The notes below the pieces were generated by a model. It made no database searches and had not been told where the DNA came from. It worked only from the letters and a program-made list of their open reading frames with translations. A DNA stretch of 64,000 nt from Norana najaformis (Eukaryota > Annelida > Clitellata > Crassiclitellata > Hormogastridae), in NCBI GenBank assembly GCA_964023275.1, contig OZ029919.1, positions 10,680,202 through 10,744,201 of the forward strand, written 5' to 3'. Both the position numbers and the translations under genes were made by a program. Positions 4,959-56,540 of the stretch are shown here, in pieces (positions within the stretch are counted from its first letter, which is position 1; each line of letters starts with the position of its first letter).

Positions 4959-6273
4959 TTACGCGGTCTTATTTAGGCTGTAATTTATTAAACGTTTGGT
5001 AATTTTGACAAAGAATGTATGTTTCATCATAGCTTCCATCATCAGGCAATGGTAGAAATGATGCAGGCGTTGAATGGGATGAAATGGGACAGTCTTACCA
5101 GGCGACAGTGGGATCTGTTCAACGGGGTTCGTTGTGTTGAGGAACAACTGATGGGACCCGGTAGAGATCACAGCGATGGTGACAAAGGTCGAATCCAAGG
5201 CAAGGTCGAATTCCATCTCCATGTAGTTGAGGCTGCGGAAGGCCATGGAGGTTGTTCCAGGCGGAAGACGAGGGGTCTGGAAACGAAGCTCTGCCACATC
5301 CAAGCGCATTCCACCGTAGCCGAAGAGCACTGTCTGTAGGAAGCCTCCCATTCCAGTTATGAAATTAACTGCTCCATCGCCCGACTGGACCTCTGTCCAC
5401 ACCTGGACGAATGGCAAAAACTCGGTTCAATGGACGGATCAACTCGACCATTAGACGAATGAATTCATTGATGGATGAAGAAAAGGAGTGGCGGATACAT
5501 CAATTGACTGATGGATAGACTCAATAACGAATACAGAATGAATGGATGGGTGGGTGGATGAATGGATGGATGGATGGATGGATGAGTGGGTGGATGGGTG
5601 GATGGGTGGGTGGGTGGATGGACGGATGGATGGATGTAACTGACCTTGAATGGTTCTCTGGCGTAGGAGTTGTAGGCCTTGGTGAAGAGTTCGTCTGCTT
5701 TGATGAACTGCCCGAGATCGAGCCACCCAGTGGAGAAGACGCCCCAAGTCATCGCTGGTCCGTTTGGGTGGGTGACCGTCTCGTACCATTCCAAGTCATT
5801 CTGACGGACATCGTCTGGCATCGTCCACATGAGTGGAAAGCCGAGCATCACCACATCCGCCTGCTTCACTCCCCGCGGATCAGACGTGTCTACCATCGAC
5901 AGCAAGTCTCTTTCAACTGTTCGGAAGAGTTTCTCTGGCTTCCTGTTCTCTTGCCTTCTTACGTGCTATTCAGCTATTCAACGATTATGAGGCACTCCAA
6001 ACATACGTCAGCTTATCTAAGTCGAGCTTGGGTTTGTCTGTCGGACAGTTGCATATGCAGCGCATACATACATACGTACAATACATACATACATACATAC
6101 ATGCTTACATACTTACATGCATACAAGCATGTATGAATACTTACATACATACATACATACATACTTACATGCATACAAGCATGTATGAATACTTACATAC
6201 ATACATAAATACATACATACATACTTACATACTTACATGCATACAAGCATGTATGAATACTTACATACATAAA

Positions 6274-6307
<34 letters not shown>

Positions 6308-9300
6308 CATACAGACAGACAAATAATTATATTCTAAGTATTGCTTCCAGTATCCTTTTGCACATCGAGGACCTACTAGTCTATCCATAAAACGACTAGC
6401 CAAAGAAATGTTTATCAAACAATTCAGTTGCCATGAACCTACGTTACTTTGCCCTATCTTGCTTTACAGTACCATACTTTACCTTACACGAGATGTAAGT
6501 ACTTTGTTTTGCCATACTGGTTTGGATTTGGTAGTCGTATCCTTCGAATTCTTCATGGTATCTTTTCGGTTTGTTGAAGGGAAAAGCGAGATTCTGAGCC
6601 AGAGAAACCCAACTAAAAAACATCAAATGCACAGTCGTTGGGTTCCAATGAATTCTTAATTTGCTAGTTAAGATATATCTGGTTCACTTACTGTCACGTT
6701 AGTCGGCTCCAATTGTTGTAGTTATTATTATTATTAATATTATTATTATAATCATCATCATCGTCATCATCATCATCATCATTATTAGTGTCAGTAAAGA
6801 CTTTTGATTAATAAATTCCTGGGTAAATTTCTTCTAAGAAAACACTATGTTTTGTTTTGAGGCATCCTGTCAGTAAAAAGAGGTTGTGTGCGACATTTAC
6901 TTGAAACCCATTATGCGTAAGTTTTGGAGCCTCTTAGGGCCCTTCATCTACCCCAAAAAACCCAAATAACACTAAAAATCATTATCTTCACCACCAAAAA
7001 CAGAACCATCATCACGTAACAGGCGTTGGCTATAGGATAGGATTTTGTGTTTCCTATGCTTTTCTGCAAATTAATGTTAGCAAAGGCAGCGTTGGTAAAA
7101 GACAGACGGAGAGCGAGAGCGAGAGAGAGAAATATAGCCAGAGAAACAGAGAGAGAAAAAAAAGAGACAGAGAGAGAACGAGTGATACAAACAGACAATG
7201 AAGGATACGAGCAAATAGAAAAATGCAAAAAATATGTTGGTTGGTCACGAATCGTGCCTGGATCTGGGCTGAACCTGTGCATGACTATCCTCGGGATGAC
7301 TCCGCGAGTGGGGAGCGCACGACAGCAAACATTGTCTTGTAATAGCCCTTGAATATTTAACAACAGCCTCGTTGCTGCCTGGCCTAGGTTGTTATTCTGC
7401 CTATACGCTGGCTGTGCCTCCTTTACGACAACAAGCACTCTACAATTACGTCGCAGCTGTTTTCGTCAAACGTCTCGCCATATTACGAGCGACCATCGTT
7501 CACTACAATTACACATGATTATCGTCAGAACTCTGTGGCAATCTATTTTGCCTTCGTGTTCCTTTCAACTGCGTCTGCCTTTGTCGTTTGTGTAACCCTA
7601 AGTCCCTGCCTACCAGCCAACCTGTCTGGTACGAGCGTCTCGTAGTCCTGACCGATGAGGCAAGCAGCGTAACGGGCGAAGTGGATGGAATAGCTGGCGA
7701 TGAGGTTCGTGTAGACGGAGTTGTTTACGTTCTCGGCATGCTCATCAGGGGGCATTACACCTGCACATGGTCGTAACAGACACGCACGCCTTTCAGATTA
7801 GCCGTACTACAAGTATCTGCTTCTAATGTACATTTAATTGCACTGTATAGTGTAGTGTTTCTCATATTTATATAGCGCTTCTTTCAGAAGAAAATTACCC
7901 AGAAGCGCTCTCGGCATGAATGCTCCGAGTAAACAGAGGAGTCGATGACTCTGAGCAACTGTGACTGAGGGACTTGCTCAAGGTCCATACACAATAACCG
8001 TCCGAGGGGATGAGGTTCGAACCCCCCTACTCTCCACATTACAAGTCGAGCGCTCTAATCAATAACTATGCTACCTACACGTGCAATAGCCTTAACAAGT
8101 AATGGACATGTGTTATATTGCATTGCATTGCATATATAACAGTGTACTGTAATAATAAGACGCTTTATATAGCGCCTTAGGACGGCCGAGACCGAAAAAG
8201 GGCAATGTACAGGAGTTCGAATTAAAAAATCAACGACAGTCGTATGATATTTTTTAAAGATGCTTTCTGAACCGTGATGGGGCATAATGGAACAATGCAT
8301 TAATAGGCCGACAAATGTTACACAAATAGCCTATCAGTACAATGTCTGTGCATATAATGTGCTATAATTATGCATGCTATTAACACACGACATGCAAACA
8401 ATATATACGAAAACTGTACAGGTAGCACAGAGCAAGCAATAAAATACGTGTTCGACTTGATTGTTAACGAGTTACTGTACAATAAGTTGCCTTCAAGACT
8501 GACCATACTTAGACTTAGACTTAGACTTAGGTCCTCCTGTTCCGATCGGAGCATTGGTCGACAAGCCTTCGCCATTCCACGCGTTCACCAGCCATCACCA
8601 TCGCCTCGTCCCAGTCCAATCCCATCCGCTCCAGATCTCCCCCGAAAGTTTAAGACTGACCATATGCAAAAGTAAAACTGCAGAGTAATACAGTTGGCTA
8701 TATTTACACAGTGTTGTAAGACCTGCATTACAAGATTCAGATTTCCTGACTGTGCGCGTAATAAGTGCTTTAAAGCAACATTTAATGATATCGATCAGAG
8801 GTGCTTGCCGTTGATGTCGTAGCGTTGCGTGGTAGAATTGAAGACTGCTCTACTGTTCCAGAACCTAGCCATCTCCAGGATGAAGTCCAGTCCAGTGTAC
8901 GACGTCCCTGCCTGGGCCGTGCTCAGCCAGTTCGTGTCTCGTGTGGCAGATATGTACTGGCGGGCGGCGTAAGCGATGTCTCCAGTTATGTGCTGTTGGT
9001 TCTCGGCACACGCGGGGCAGATGACCGGGGTTACTTCGATCCCGGTGTAGGCACTCTCCCAGGGGAACCGCGCGCCCTCGTATCCACCTATTGCCGCTCG
9101 ATCGAAGGCAGCATTTATGCCATGGATTCGGTAGGACAGTATGTCTCGGGCAAGTTCCGGCCGCAGCATTAGGATTCCCGGATACATCCACGTTTCCATG
9201 TCCCAGAACACGTGTCCCTGGTAGTCAGTATTATTGGCACCGTTCGGAAGGCCTCCGGGTGACAGGCCGTAGAACTGGTTGTTGGTCGAGTAGGCCGAGT

Positions 9301-12300
9301 GAGATGGAAGGCTCGTGTACAGGTAGTAGAGACATCCGCGAACGACCTTCTGAAGGTGAAGGTCGCCTTGGATTTCGATGTCACCCTTGGCCCAGACGGA
9401 TGACCGGAAGGTCTGATGGTGATCGAGATGAAGTCCTTCGCTGTCGCCGACTGAGATTAGATCGAAGGCTCTGTCGAAGTTCTCTTGAGCGACTGAGGTC
9501 TGCTGATCAACGGAAAGGACGAAGGTCCACCTGGCGCTGTTCTGACCTTGGGGAAGGACGAAGGTCGTCGGCATCTCGTTCCAGTACAAAGACAGCTGTA
9601 TTTTCGGAGTCGTTGGCGTTTCCGGTTCAGTGATTTCGCCTGACTGAGTCCTTCGTATTGATAAAATAATCGTTTATCATTCGTATTATAAATCCCACAA
9701 GACTACTGCAGGCAAAAACCGCTGATGGCCACACACGTCGTACGTAATTCAGTATCAAGGTAAAAGGTAAAGGTTCCCCATACTCGCAATCGAGCTTCGG
9801 GGCCGGAGCTGATCCCGGTGTTAGGCTGTCAACCCGTAGGTGGCATTGCCATGCATCGGGGGTAGGTGGCCAGGTCTTTCCGGCGAACCCACGGTTACCT
9901 ACGCAGTCGAACTGTTACTCATTTCACTGCGGCCCCTTTGGAGTAAAGGCTGAGTCGACCTTATTGGGCTAGCGGGATTCGAACCTGCGTCCTTCTGCTA
10001 TTCGCACCAGTGTTTTTACCATTCAGCTATCACCCCGCTCCAGTTCAATAGAGCTATTGGCATTTTCTTGAATAATTAGCCTTTTTACCTTTATACTGAA
10101 CTTAGTGGCTATCAGCGGTTTTTGCCGCTATGATAGACCTATAATGAAGTTTGCCTTGCTTAAAAAAATTCTTTACATGTAAAGTTCTCTGCAGACTCAT
10201 TCTGCAAAGCCATTTCTACCAAGTTCAACGCCTGCAGACTTGTACATGCGATTAATAAATATTTGTTATTAGTTAATTAAGAAAATCGTAAGCTTAAATG
10301 TAATTGATTTCCTGACTTCGTTTGTTTTGTGTTTACATATTGTATAGAATTTCGTTATATTTTGCTGCGTCAATAGTCATCTCGCTTCTGTGCTAATAGT
10401 CTGCCCTAACCAAGCTGGACTTTCTTTATTTTTGATGTACCTTTCGCATCACGTTAAAATGTATATCATCTGTAAGATGTAACATTGTTGACTTTCAATC
10501 AGTTAAAGTGATAATGATGCTGATTATGTTGATGACATGAAATATTTCGTATCGAATGTATTACCAGCACTGGGTGTTTGCCGCGGCGCAGTTGGGGTTT
10601 GGATAAGATTGGACCGGTTGAAGAGCCAGGTCCTGAGAGGCCGCAGAACCAAGGTCCAGTCTGGTTGCCGTGATGTCAAGAGAGCAGCAAGGTCCGCACG
10701 AACTTGACTGGTTGCGTTCTATGATGACTTCCGTGACCAGGAGGCGAGTGAAGCGCTGATGAGCATACACCTGGTAGGTGACTGTAGCTCCAGGTAGCAA
10801 CATGACTTCTTGGAATGTTGCTATAGGAACGAATCACAGATACACCGGAAAATCTTACCTACATCTGTCGAGGTTATCTCGCAAAAAATACCGTAACTTT
10901 ATACTAAAGAGTGACGCGGGGACAGAAATTTATTCCCACTCCCAATCCGAATTTTTAATGTTAACCCTATTCCCTATCCCTCCCCGCAGACACCTGTCCC
11001 CGCTCCCTAATCATCGCCGCAAACCTTCTTCTCATCCCCTCATCATTCCAACATGATAGATTTTTATCCCCGCACTGTCCCCAAAACTTACAGGAAATAA
11101 ACAGTCAACGCATAACATGAACACTGAAAGCATACTAAGTTTGTTAACGTTTTGGAAAAGTCGAACACTAAAATGCTGTACCAAAGCTAATTATTTGTTT
11201 CATTCACGGATAAAGAGCACATCATCGATAGTTTCAGTACTTAGCTACATTCCACGACCCTCAATTGTTCACGAAATGTCTCTAGTATATAGTCTGTTTT
11301 AGCCGTAGTCTCTGAACGACTTTCCGCGTTACCTTGATCATAGGAATTATATGTTTCAGATTAGTCTATAGAGACATAATGAGCGCTTTATTACGTCTGA
11401 AGGTAGAGAAAAATCAAATGGTAGGGGCCTGCAACAGTGCTGTAGACCCAGACAGATCTATAACGAATTATCGAGAACCCAAACTGCAAAATGTTCATGA
11501 ATATTGGGAATGAAATTCGAACTGCATTTGTAGAAAACGCTGAGCTCAGAACCACAAGAAAAATATTCACCAAAGTAACACTGCAAAATAATTAACTTTA
11601 AGAAAATTTGGTGTTAAATTAGCCAGTTGCCAAATGAATACAGTTCGGCTCTTCTTAACTATGTGCTATAAGTCTAGTCTATCCAATAACGAACAAGACA
11701 AGAATTTTACTCATACACGAATAAAGTAACACACATATAGTATTGCAAGCATCGTATTCTTCTTCCCATTGTCTGTCCTGCGAATCTAGTTTCAAACACC
11801 ACCCACCGTAGCAGTCTGACTACATGCCTGCCTGACTTTTGAACCTTGACCTGGAATCGAGCCCTTCTTGCCTATAGATTTTGTTTTGACTAAGCGCCTG
11901 TGATTAAGCTGGTTCTCGCGACATAGCTTTCTTTGGGCACTGTAGAAATCTCGAGTTTAAGACACCTCGAGTTTAAGATTACAATGATAAGGTGAAATCT
12001 ATGAAGCCCTACGAGGAGAGGTGCTTACCGTTCTGGAGGTCAAGTCTATAGCGTCGAAGAGGATTTCCACATTCGTCATTTGGAAAAGAAAAGTTGCTGG
12101 AATGGATGGACGGAATCCTAGCTCTGTGACTCCAACCTACAGTGCATCGTCGTACAATGTAATAATGTAATGTAATGTAACGATGTGGGATGATGCCCTA
12201 TAATCTAGAGCGATGTGCTGATGTTATGTCTTGTGTTGCAACGTAATGTTATGCTATCTGAAGGTACGAAATTTTGTATCTCATCATTATTTTGATGTTG

Positions 12301-18945: not shown

Positions 18946-19251
18946 AATAATACTAATCACGCATATATCTGGGAATCAATGACGTCATTTATGTTTCTGT
19001 ATCAATACTACCGTAAAAATTAAAATCTAAAATCCTTTTGAAGGTATGTTCTGGAAAAGCAGACACAATTGTACAAATTCTTCTGTTGTCTGTTGTTCAA
19101 ACACGTTATTGAAGTCATCGAAAAAAACTCACGGTACAACGGTGACAGTTTTGACCTCTTTTGCAAATTCTCATGCATTCACTTATGTTCTGTGTTGGCC
19201 ACAACACGAACATTATTAATGTCACCCACTAACGTTTTGATAACACCTATG

Positions 19252-19569
19252 ACCGGCCAGAAGCTTTGGTGGAAGGGCGGTGGTGTGACCGGCCAGAAGC
19301 TTTGGTGGAAGGGCGGTGGTGTGACCGGCCAGAAGCTTTGGTGGAAGGGCGGTGGTGTGACCGGCCAGAAGCTTTGGTGGAAGGGCGGTGGTGTGACCGG
19401 CCAGAAGCTTTGGTGGAAGGGCGGTGGTGTGACCGGCCAGAAGCTTTGGTGGAAGGGGGTGTGTGACCGGCCAGAAGCTTTGGTGGAAGGGCGGTGGTGT
19501 GACCGGCCAGAAGCTTTGGTGGATGGGCGGTCGTGTGACCGGCCAGAAGCTTTGGTGGAAGGGCGGTAA
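19252..19569. repeat. 36 bp minisatellite, nine copies
   Basis: Unit begins GACCGGCCAGAAGCTTTGG and repeats every 36 bp (HindIII site in each). Copy 6 has a 2 bp deletion. The units are nearly identical, hence recently expanded. They read as TGQKLWWKGGGV on plus and are also open on minus, but there is no evidence of a protein. Confidence 0.9.
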
Positions 19570-28943: not shown

Positions 28944-29640
28944 GAAAAAGGAATGCGAACGTCTCTGTTCTGGGCACGTCTCCAGGTCGTGTCTACTGTA
29001 TAGTCCGAAATTCAGTGGGCGCAGATAGGGCTCCACCACTCTTGTCCAATTGGTCAGTTCCGGACTTTTTCAACTTCTTGTGAGGCCAGATATCATTGCT
29101 CGTAGAACTCTGGTATGGTCCTATTCACTGTCGCAACGTGCGGTGTGTCTAAACAGCCGGAGCCTCCTTGATTGGGCTCGCGTTGGCGACGTGAGCCGTA
29201 TATGGAATGTGCAGGATTCTCCTCTTGCACCACTGATTCAAGGCACTGAGCTTCGCATCACGTCCAAATCTCAGTTCCTATTTTGTACTGCACCGCCTTA
29301 ATCATTACTCATGATATCTTAAACGAAGTAACGTGACCTATTTCTACATAAAATAATCACGAAAGTTTCTTTTCTTAGTGTTCAGTATTGAGTTTCTTCT
29401 TTTCAGGAGTGTCACTTGTAACATAAATTCGTACAATTTCTCCAAATTAAATATTTCAGTTACATATCCACTGTCATCAACTTCGAAGGCCAACTATGGA
29501 GTGGAAATTCATTGGTCGGGCTAAAGTGTCTGCGTTAGACTGCCAGTGTGGACGACGGCCTTCCGCTAAACGAGCATCACTCGTAGCACCCGAAGTTGTG
29601 CTTTTAGAACTGTAGCATCATTTGCGCTAGCAAGAAGTGC
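26580..29640. other. No supported gene
   Basis: 27300-27425 is degenerate TTGA repeat and 28905-28945 is GACA repeat. Minus frames at 27.71-27.93 and 28.22-28.43 kb look protein-like in composition but match no family I know. Confidence 0.4.
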
Positions 29641-29699
29641 TTTTGTGAGGTTCTAATGGCGCTATACAAATGCCCTGATACACTTACATACAGCCAGAG

Positions 29700-30024
29700 C
29701 AGCGATTCTCAAACTTTTTGGTCTCAGGATCCCTTTACACTCTTAAAAATTATTACTGAGGACTCCAAAGAGCTTTGTTTATGTAGGTTATATCTATCGA
29801 TATTTACCATATTATAAATTAAAACTGAGAAATTAATGCATTAATTCATAATAAAATAACAATAATAAGCCTGTTACATGTTAACATAAATAACATATTT
29901 TTATGAAAAGTCACTATATTTTTTAAACAAAAAACTATGGTCTTATTGTTATTATGAAAATAGTATTGACCTCGCGGACCCCTTGAAATGGTCTCGGGAA
30001 AACCCAGGGTCCTAGGACTGAATC
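29700..30024 (+). mobile_element. Non-autonomous hAT-like transposon (325 bp) with 8 bp target-site duplications
   Basis: The left end CAGCGATTCTCAAACTTTTT is a typical hAT terminus. The right end is decayed (...GGACTGAATC). Flanking 8-mers AGCCAGAG (29692-29699) and AGCTAGAG (30025-30032) differ at one base, as expected for hAT target duplications. There is no transposase. The interior (AT-rich, with GACCTCGCGGACCCC near the right end) closely resembles, from memory, a Charlie-type hAT element common in vertebrates. Confidence 0.75.
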
Positions 30025-30943
30025 AGCTAGAGGATGGCGCTATTGAAGTGTTGGGTTACACTAATTTACATTCCAGTAAAACATCACCATCAATAATTTC
30101 GTCTTTTATTGTGAACAGTCAAAAGCACTTGACGAGCTACTTCATGTGACCGAGAGTTTCCTTAAAGGATTTTAACGTAAAGTTTCTGTTACAACAGTTA
30201 CTGTGAATGTTCCATCTAAGATTTCTATTTACATGTTACTTTTCCACTGACAATCACCCAGAGAAAAACAAACTAGCAACAGGCTAAATAATGCAACCGC
30301 TAATCTTAGGGACCAGCGTGTTATTGGACCGCGGCTTAACGGGTCGGCCGAGCAACGTAGACAAACCCCTCTGCAAGAGCGCATGATTCCTTCTCCTGAA
30401 TAATAATAGGCCAGAGACCGGTCTGATTACATTACTGAGAAACTGCCTTCATCGGAACCACCTGCTTGGAAACCGCGTCGATACCCAGCAGTTGCCCTTC
30501 AATTTGTGCGCCCAGGTTCGAATCAAACACTAAAATCGACAATCGCATCAGATGAGGTATTCATGTGTTTAACGCAAAATATGCAGGTTTCTAGCCGCCG
30601 ACAAACAACTGTGAAAATAATCAGCTTATTCGCTCTTTTAACAAGAACTGGTTATTGCTGAGATAAATGCAGTCAAATTTGTTCCGGCTGTGTTTCTTAT
30701 TCAGGAAGAGGTAAATGTGCGCTGCCTCGGCGGAATGTGTTTAATATTTTGCATTGGCAAGAACGCTAAACAGCAGTAGAAGTCAGGTTTAAAGCAATGG
30801 TAAGTAGCACGTCACGTAACAGACTGTGGGCGACATCATGCTATAGTCAATGCTTTGGCTTCAGTAAGATTAACGTAGAGTCTCTAAGGAGTTTCCCCTC
30901 TCTCTCATGCGCTATAAATATATTGAATTGATTTTAAAATTGT

Positions 30944-47660: not shown

Positions 47661-47666
47661 ACCTTC

Positions 47667-48130
47667 TTCAAGACCAATAAAACTACATAGAAAAACATAT
47701 CCTTCAAGACCAGTGAAACTACATAGAAAAACATATTCTTCAAGACCAATAAAACTACACAGAAAAACATATTCTTCAAGACCAATAAAACTACACAGAA
47801 AAACATATTCTTCAAGACCAATAAAACTACATAGAAAAACATATCCTTCAAGACCAACAGAACTACATAGAAAAACATATTCTTCAAGACCAACAGAACT
47901 ACATAGAAAAACATATTCTTCAAGACCAATAAAACTACATAGAAAAACATATCCTTCAAGACCAATAAAACTACATAGAAAAACATATTCTTCAAGACCA
48001 ATAAAACTACATAGAAAAACATATTCTTCAAGACCAATAAAACTACATAGAAAAACATATTCTTCAAGACCAATGAAACTACATAGAAAAGATATCCTTA
48101 AAGACCAACAGAACTACATAGAAAACCCAT
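47667..48130. repeat. 36 bp minisatellite, twelve to thirteen copies
   Basis: Unit begins TTCAAGACCAATAAAACTAC. Starts fall every 36 bp from 47667 to 48063, then a shortened copy. Variants (ACAGAACT, AGTGAAACT, ATATCC/ATATTC) are interspersed. Open on both strands (KLHRKTYSSRPI on plus, a hydrophobic VLKNMFFYVVLL on minus). Unrelated in sequence to the 19.3 kb array. Confidence 0.9.
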
Positions 48131-56334: not shown

Positions 56335-56540
56335 GAGACACGTTGCTAAGGAGGGAGACTGGTTGCTAGAGATAGGAGACAGGTCATCAAGTACAGGAGA
56401 CACGTTGCTAAGGAGGGAGACTGGTTGCTAAAGACAGGAGAAAGGTCACCGAGTACAGGAGACACGTTGCTAAGGAGGGAGACTGGTTGCTAGAGACAGG
56501 AGAAAGGTCACCGAGTACAGGAGACACGTTGCTAAGGATG
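56335..56540. repeat. 62 bp tandem repeat, 3.3 copies
   Basis: Unit begins GAGACACGTTGCTAAGGAGG and starts at 56335, 56397, 56459 and 56521 (partial). Related fragments (CTGTTGCTTGAGACAGGAGA, TTGCTAAGG) recur at 56745-56800. Confidence 0.85.

What the first reader, a model, noticed from the sequence alone, without database searches (positions are those of the whole stretch)
29692..30032. hAT-like element resembling a vertebrate Charlie-type transposon in an invertebrate-looking genome
The 325 bp insert has a hAT-type left end and 8 bp flanking duplications (AGCCAGAG/AGCTAGAG). Its interior, such as CCCTTTACACTCTTAAAAAT and GACCTCGCGGACCCC, is strikingly like a hAT element I know from mammalian genomes. 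hAT elements are known to move horizontally between animals. If the similarity holds, this is either a horizontally transferred family or a very conserved non-autonomous element. Decay of the right end and of one duplication base argues against recent contamination.
Basis: partly seen in the sequence, partly recalled or inferred. Interest (0 to 1): 0.75.

Follow-up and report, generated by a model that had tools for sequence, protein, structure and literature searches.

The report
Mammal-like MER1/Charlie3 transposon in an annelid
A worm genome carries hundreds of old copies of a small cut-and-paste transposon that looks nearly the same as one known from primates, which points to the element having jumped between very distant animals rather than having been inherited.

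Summary
Window 29700-30024 is a 325-bp copy of a non-autonomous hAT element with an 8-bp target duplication matching at 7 of 8 bases; about 19 bp of its right end are lost. The 608-Mb, 17-contig genome gave 383 candidate copies; 40 were scored and all 40 matched a 336-bp consensus at 85-91%. Markers make the host an annelid: erythrocruorin linkers, many innexins. Longer copies keep the C-terminus of a decayed transposase. An 85-aa peptide, recalled from memory as that of human MER1A/Charlie3, was sent before any relic had been seen. The majority of 22 annelid relic loci equals it at 82 of 85 residues, one by a tie; 23 loci of other hAT families reach 42-57%. Recalled mammalian DNA matches both ends of the consensus at 93-95%. 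A recalled SPIN element, as control, matched only its last 67-82 bp. No vertebrate sequence was available to any tool, so the mammalian side rests on recall plus papers. Best reading: a Charlie3/MER1-type hAT moved horizontally, directly or through third hosts. New member of a known kind (compare SPIN, OC1).

The parts
29692..29699 (.). left target-site duplication AGCCAGAG
   Evidence: read; 7 of 8 bases equal the right copy; family-wide duplications
29700..30024 (+). non-autonomous hAT (Charlie3/MER1-like) element, 325 bp, aligned to consensus positions 1-317 of 336
29700..29713 (+). left terminal inverted repeat CAGCGATTCTCAAA (consensus CAGCGGTTCTCAAA)
30019..30024 (+). decayed right end: TGAATC where the consensus has about 19 bp including the terminal repeat TTTGAGAACCGCTG
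   Evidence: (three-way alignment)
30025..30032 (.). right target-site duplication AGCTAGAG
   Evidence: read

Best explanation
A deletion derivative (MITE) of a hAT transposon of the Charlie3/MER1 lineage. Its ends are cut and joined in trans by the transposase of a longer relative, leaving 8-bp target duplications (structure shown here; transposition itself inferred). The lineage entered an ancestor of this annelid by horizontal transfer, directly from or through vertebrates or a shared third host (inferred). It left deletion derivatives of several sizes (about 336 bp, about 470-525 bp, and 640-700 bp) and then seems to have died: among the copies examined there are only decayed elements and C-terminal transposase fragments.
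For: Consensus with perfect 14-bp inverted ends. 20 of 33 copies with both ends have 6 or more of 8 duplication bases matching, against 4.8% when lefts and rights of different copies are paired; 7 of the 40 aligned copies were left out for lost ends. Long copies with transposase C-terminus between the same ends. Recalled mammalian peptide against majority of 22 annelid relic loci, one per place: 82 of 85 (one tied column counted as agreeing), and 64 of 64 columns covered by 10 or more loci; 23 loci of other hAT families of this genome 42-57%. Recalled DNA against consensus: 92.9% over 239 columns on the left, 94.7% over 113 on the right. At 29 substitution sites where the window copy differs from the consensus, the recalled mammalian sequence agrees with the consensus at 26, the window at 2, neither at 1. 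SPIN control: terminal match only. Papers (passages): MER1A and MER1B come from CHARLIE3 (PMC5753468); Charlie3 among the dominating DNA transposons of tarsier, with recent activity (PMC5059674); simian-specific MER1A in ANRIL (PMC3831594). Host annelid.
Against: No vertebrate sequence was compared by a tool; the mammalian side is recall. The recalled nucleotide pieces were typed after the consensus had been seen, so only the peptide test is prospective in the log, and the peptide guided the alignment from which the majority was taken. Single relics are only 54-94% identical to the peptide. 13 of 33 copies with both ends have fewer than 6 of 8 duplication bases matching. Presence or absence in other annelids and in other vertebrates is unknown. 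No autonomous copy was found. The direction of transfer is not shown.
Confidence: 0.85

Rival explanations
1. An ordinary resident annelid hAT MITE that shares only the generic Charlie-type ends with mammalian elements, the likeness being over-read from memory.
For: The genome holds many other hAT copies (of 150 scored transposase matches most are below 60% identity to the peptide), some with right ends 66-77% like the consensus over 64-109 columns. hAT ends of this group are alike in general.
Against: The recalled peptide predicted 82 of 85 residues (one by a tie) of coding relics that are not in the window. The recalled left piece runs past position 450 in relics L058, L073, L090, L091, L093, L095, L096 and L098 at 79-87%, where other families give 58-69%. 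A recalled SPIN element matched only at its right end.
Confidence: 0.08
2. Vertical inheritance of a very conserved element from the last common ancestor of annelids and mammals.
For: Shared sequence in two deep lineages, by itself.
Against: Copies are neutral-looking: mean 0.106 K2P from consensus without CpG sites in the 40 aligned; many transposase relics carry stops or frameshifts. A decaying repeat could not keep 93-95% between lineages split for over 500 million years (age recalled). Papers report Charlie3/MER1 insertion within primates.
Confidence: 0.03
3. Contamination of the assembly, or of the window, with mammalian DNA.
For: None found.
Against: The 80 rows listed (many places in both) lie on C1 to C16 of a 17-contig assembly; the 40 aligned copies are diverged and many have their own duplications; the consensus differs from the recalled mammalian sequence at 5-7% of sites.
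Confidence: 0.01

Closest known systems
MER1A/MER1B and Charlie3 (hAT-Charlie, primates)
   Same: Ends, length class (336 bp here; MER1B 337 and MER1A 527 bp from memory), noncoding interior, C-terminal transposase sequence, layout of long and short deletion derivatives.
   Different: Host is an annelid; 5-7% consensus differences and a 7-column gap near position 135 against the recalled sequence; the internal deletion joint of the longer annelid copies seems to differ from recalled MER1A. Human side recalled, not searched.
OposCharlie1 (OC1) and SPIN horizontally transferred hAT families
   Same: hAT elements nearly identical between distant animals; OC1 is 90-95% identical across hosts (PMC3621081, passages); SPIN, OC1, hAT1 and ET occur in Rhodnius (PMC11614815, passages).
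   Different: Different family: recalled SPIN matches this genome only over its last 67-82 bp at 77-84%. The cases in those passages involve tetrapods and a blood-feeding bug; here the partner is an annelid and the family is one from primates.
Other hAT transposons of the same annelid genome (e.g. L063, 554-aa open frame)
   Same: Same superfamily: L063 has a weak PF05699 match, just under its cut-off (the two L049 frames in that call matched no family); several have similar right ends.
   Different: Only 42-57% identical to the recalled peptide in the C-terminal 85 aa (23 loci).

Membership tests
hAT superfamily, non-autonomous (MITE) | short terminal inverted repeats of hAT type (CAGNGGTTCTCAAA) | tested here: met
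   consensus ends CAGCGGTTCTCAAA / TTTGAGAACCGCTG; right end lost in the window copy
hAT superfamily, non-autonomous (MITE) | 8-bp target-site duplication | tested here: met
   20 of 33 copies at 6/8 or better against 4.8% of mismatched pairs
hAT superfamily, non-autonomous (MITE) | mobilised by a hAT transposase with related sequence | tested here: inconclusive
   decayed C-terminal transposase relics between the same ends; no full-length partner found
Charlie3/MER1 | full-length nucleotide similarity to the Charlie3/MER1A/MER1B consensus (about 80% or more over 80% of length) | not testable with these tools
   no repeat library or vertebrate genome at hand; recalled pieces give 93-95% at both ends
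Charlie3/MER1 | transposase C-terminus of Charlie3 | tested here: inconclusive
   82 of 85 residues (one by a tie) equal a peptide recalled from memory and sent before the relics were seen; that the peptide is Charlie3's comes from no call
Horizontally transferred transposon | similarity between hosts far above that expected from host divergence | tested here: inconclusive
   strong if the recalled sequence is right; not measured against real vertebrate DNA or host genes
Horizontally transferred transposon | patchy distribution among relatives of each host | not testable with these tools
   own genome has no relatives in the collection
SPIN | full-length similarity to SPIN | tested here: not met
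   recalled SPIN sequence: 18 of 18 scored matches cover only its last 67-82 bp of 311

The most novel reading that the evidence does not exclude
Charlie3, one of the transposons that shaped primate genomes, came from an invertebrate reservoir: annelids or their parasites and soil or water neighbours kept and passed on this hAT lineage, and primates and this worm were infected from the same source within the same era, each then making its own short derivatives.
Probability: 0.2. Interest if true: 0.85.

Novelty: new member of a known kind. Interest (0 to 1): 0.62.

Why it matters
If confirmed, a hAT family active in the primate lineage is shared almost unchanged with an annelid. That would tie the origin of the primate DNA-transposon wave to transfer across phyla and give a concrete sequence to trace through soil and aquatic animals and their parasites. 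It would extend the SPIN/OC1 type of event to annelids.

Tried and rejected
Rfam on the whole window (gathering) and on 29650-30080 (E up to 1): 0 matches. Phage and plasmid collections with the element, distant mode: no match. Exact-pattern scans: viral contigs with three patterns, 0; genome contigs with one pattern, 0. Printed-sequence searches of the paper library: 0 papers and 2 unrelated ones (listing). Paper searches for Charlie3 with MER1B or horizontal, and for hAT transfer with molluscs, primates, snails, earthworms or annelids: no report of this family in an annelid was seen. Searches found 457 and 875 papers and listed only 10 and 15, and most subscription papers are not held, so this does not show that no report exists. 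PMC1914374 is not held.

Host: the mollusc guess was tested with hemocyanin PF14830, 0 matches, and the leech guess with hirudin PF00713, 0 matches; in both the 14 controls were also silent, so neither is evidence of absence. Empty-site search with the joined flanks against loci already held: of 7 matching loci none crosses the joint; the left flank itself resembles an old dispersed repeat. A date was not attempted: no substitution rate for this host. My first majority of relic peptides (81 of 85 over 23 loci) counted two places twice (L054/L103, L062/L106) and left out one (L050/L100); one search repeats it with one locus per place (22 loci: 82 of 85, one by a tie).

Full report
What is there. 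The sequence at 29692-30032 reads as described: an 8-bp direct repeat AGCCAGAG/AGCTAGAG around a 325-bp insert that begins CAGCGATTCTCAAAC. The window lies in contig C7 of a genome of 608,420,607 bases in 17 contigs. Searching that genome with the insert gave 346 first-look candidates; 40 were scored and 40 matched, the 39 other than the window copy at 80-85% identity. All 40 places were fetched with flanks and aligned. The consensus is 336 bp with perfect 14-bp inverted ends. Searching with the consensus gave 383 candidates, 40 scored, 40 matched at 85-91%. Because only the best 40 are scored, copy number is open upwards and the divergences are biased towards well-kept copies or, copies like this one. 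No scored copy was closer than 91%, so the family looks extinct here.

How it inserted. Of 40 aligned copies, 33 keep both ends; 20 of these 33 have 6 or more matching bases of 8 in the flanking duplication, against 4.8% when left and right flanks of different copies are paired. The other 13 of 33 have fewer than 6 matching. The commonest duplication bases resemble the hAT preference nTCTAGAn (preference recalled). Mean distance to consensus without CpG sites is 0.106 over the 40.

Longer relatives. An 85-aa peptide that I recalled as the C-terminus of the transposase in human MER1A/Charlie3 was searched in the genome: 294 candidates, 150 scored. Most matches are below 60% identical and belong to other hAT families, several with long open frames. 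A smaller group of mostly short matches, many of them broken by stops, reaches up to 89%. Seven loci of that group (L050, L054, L058, L062, L064, L065, L073) carry the element's own ends. In an alignment of six of them the transposase remnant lies between the left end and the right end in copies L065 (518 bp) and L062 (about 490 bp). A DNA search with an internal stretch of L058 gave 22 matches from 21 candidates; several of these are alike over about 640-690 bp. Spans measured between both ends were 471, 483, 508, 512, 518, 523, 638 and 695 bp (L058 and L089 are the same place; a further locus, L064, gave 1529 bp because its left piece is displaced). No full-length autonomous copy was found in these searches.

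The test of the mammalian likeness. The peptide was sent before any relic had been seen (first, answered), so it is a prospective prediction. Taking the tblastn-aligned residues of 22 annelid relic loci that carry the element's ends, one per genomic place, the majority equals the recalled peptide at 82 of 85 positions, one of these being a two-against-two tie; coverage runs from 3 to 21 loci, and all 64 columns covered by 10 or more loci agree. An earlier version with two places counted twice and one left out gave 81 of 85. Single relics are 54-94% identical over the part that they keep, as expected of decayed copies. The query guided the alignment, which favours agreement somewhat. The 23 loci of other hAT families are 42-57% identical to the recalled peptide. 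At the DNA level, recalled pieces match the annelid consensus at 92.9% over 239 columns (left) and 94.7% over 113 columns (right), and run through single decayed relics for up to 494 bp. Where the window copy differs from the annelid consensus by substitution, the recalled sequence agrees with the consensus at 26 of 29 sites. These nucleotide pieces were typed after the consensus had been seen, so they are weaker evidence than the peptide. As a control, a recalled SPIN element, which shares the same kind of ends, matched only over its last 67-82 bp in 18 of 18 scored places.

The host. Innexins give 73 matches, 16 of them near full length (positions 1 to 332-333) without a stop. The annelid erythrocruorin linker family PF16915 gives 29 matches, the best at 8.1e-32. 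That this family is confined to annelids is recalled. Mollusc hemocyanin and hirudin gave nothing, with silent controls. I conclude that the host is an annelid, species unknown.

What the papers say. Passages seen, not whole texts: MER1A and MER1B originated from CHARLIE3 (PMC5753468). Charlie3 is among the dominating DNA transposons of tarsier with recent activity there (PMC5059674). A simian-specific MER1A reaches from exon 3 into intron 3 of ANRIL (PMC3831594); the same paper reports hits of a longer, overlapping stretch of that exon in zebrafish, lizard and non-placental mammals, which it sets apart from the MER1A and which I did not pursue. OC1 elements are 90-95% identical among distant hosts, explained by horizontal transfer (PMC3621081). 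SPIN, OC1, hAT1 and ET moved between tetrapods and Rhodnius, up to about 98.1% identity (PMC11614815). In the snail-schistosome paper PMC13155389 the terms hAT and annelid do not occur. My ten paper searches showed no report of Charlie3/MER1 in an annelid; two of them listed only a small part of what they found, and the library lacks most subscription papers.

Interpretation. Structure, duplications and dispersal make this a hAT MITE family beyond reasonable doubt. Near identity, over noncoding and coding parts, with an element that primates were still mobilising makes horizontal transfer by far the simplest account, if the recalled sequence is right. That the transfer involved the autonomous element and not just the MITE is suggested by the annelid's longer derivatives with transposase remnants; comparison of deletion joints with real MER1A/MER1B would test it. 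Direction, date and intermediaries remain open.

Noticed in passing
window 29608-29692: The left flank of the element resembles an old dispersed repeat (GGCGCTATACAAATGCCC-type tail), matching parts of other loci (L074, L065, L047, L077, L078, L063) at 68-82%; a diverged copy of its end (ATGGCGCTAT) lies just right of the element at 30034.
   Followed up: partly
window 4959-9673, minus strand: Exons of a glycosyl hydrolase family 65 gene (PF03632 4e-35, PF03633 2.7e-5), possibly a protein-glucosylgalactosylhydroxylysine glucosidase relative (recalled).
   Followed up: partly
L063 (C2:17230265) and the 18 places: Other hAT copies in the same genome have a right end 77-84% like the last 67-82 bp of recalled SPIN; one such end lies about 1.9 kb from the transposase match of L063.
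   Followed up: no
G000 C1:9.37-9.73 Mb (L094, L096, L097, L099, L100): Five of the longer copies sit within 360 kb on one contig; perhaps a local duplication.
   Followed up: no
L101 (C3:5720507): The right end of one long copy is partly repeated in tandem: consensus stretch 269-303 is found two to three more times.
   Followed up: no
window 19250-19567, 47664-48125, 56335-56538: Minisatellites with 36-, 36- and 62-bp units.
   Followed up: no
G000: Large innexin set: 73 matches, 16 nearly full length without introns in the domain.
   Followed up: no
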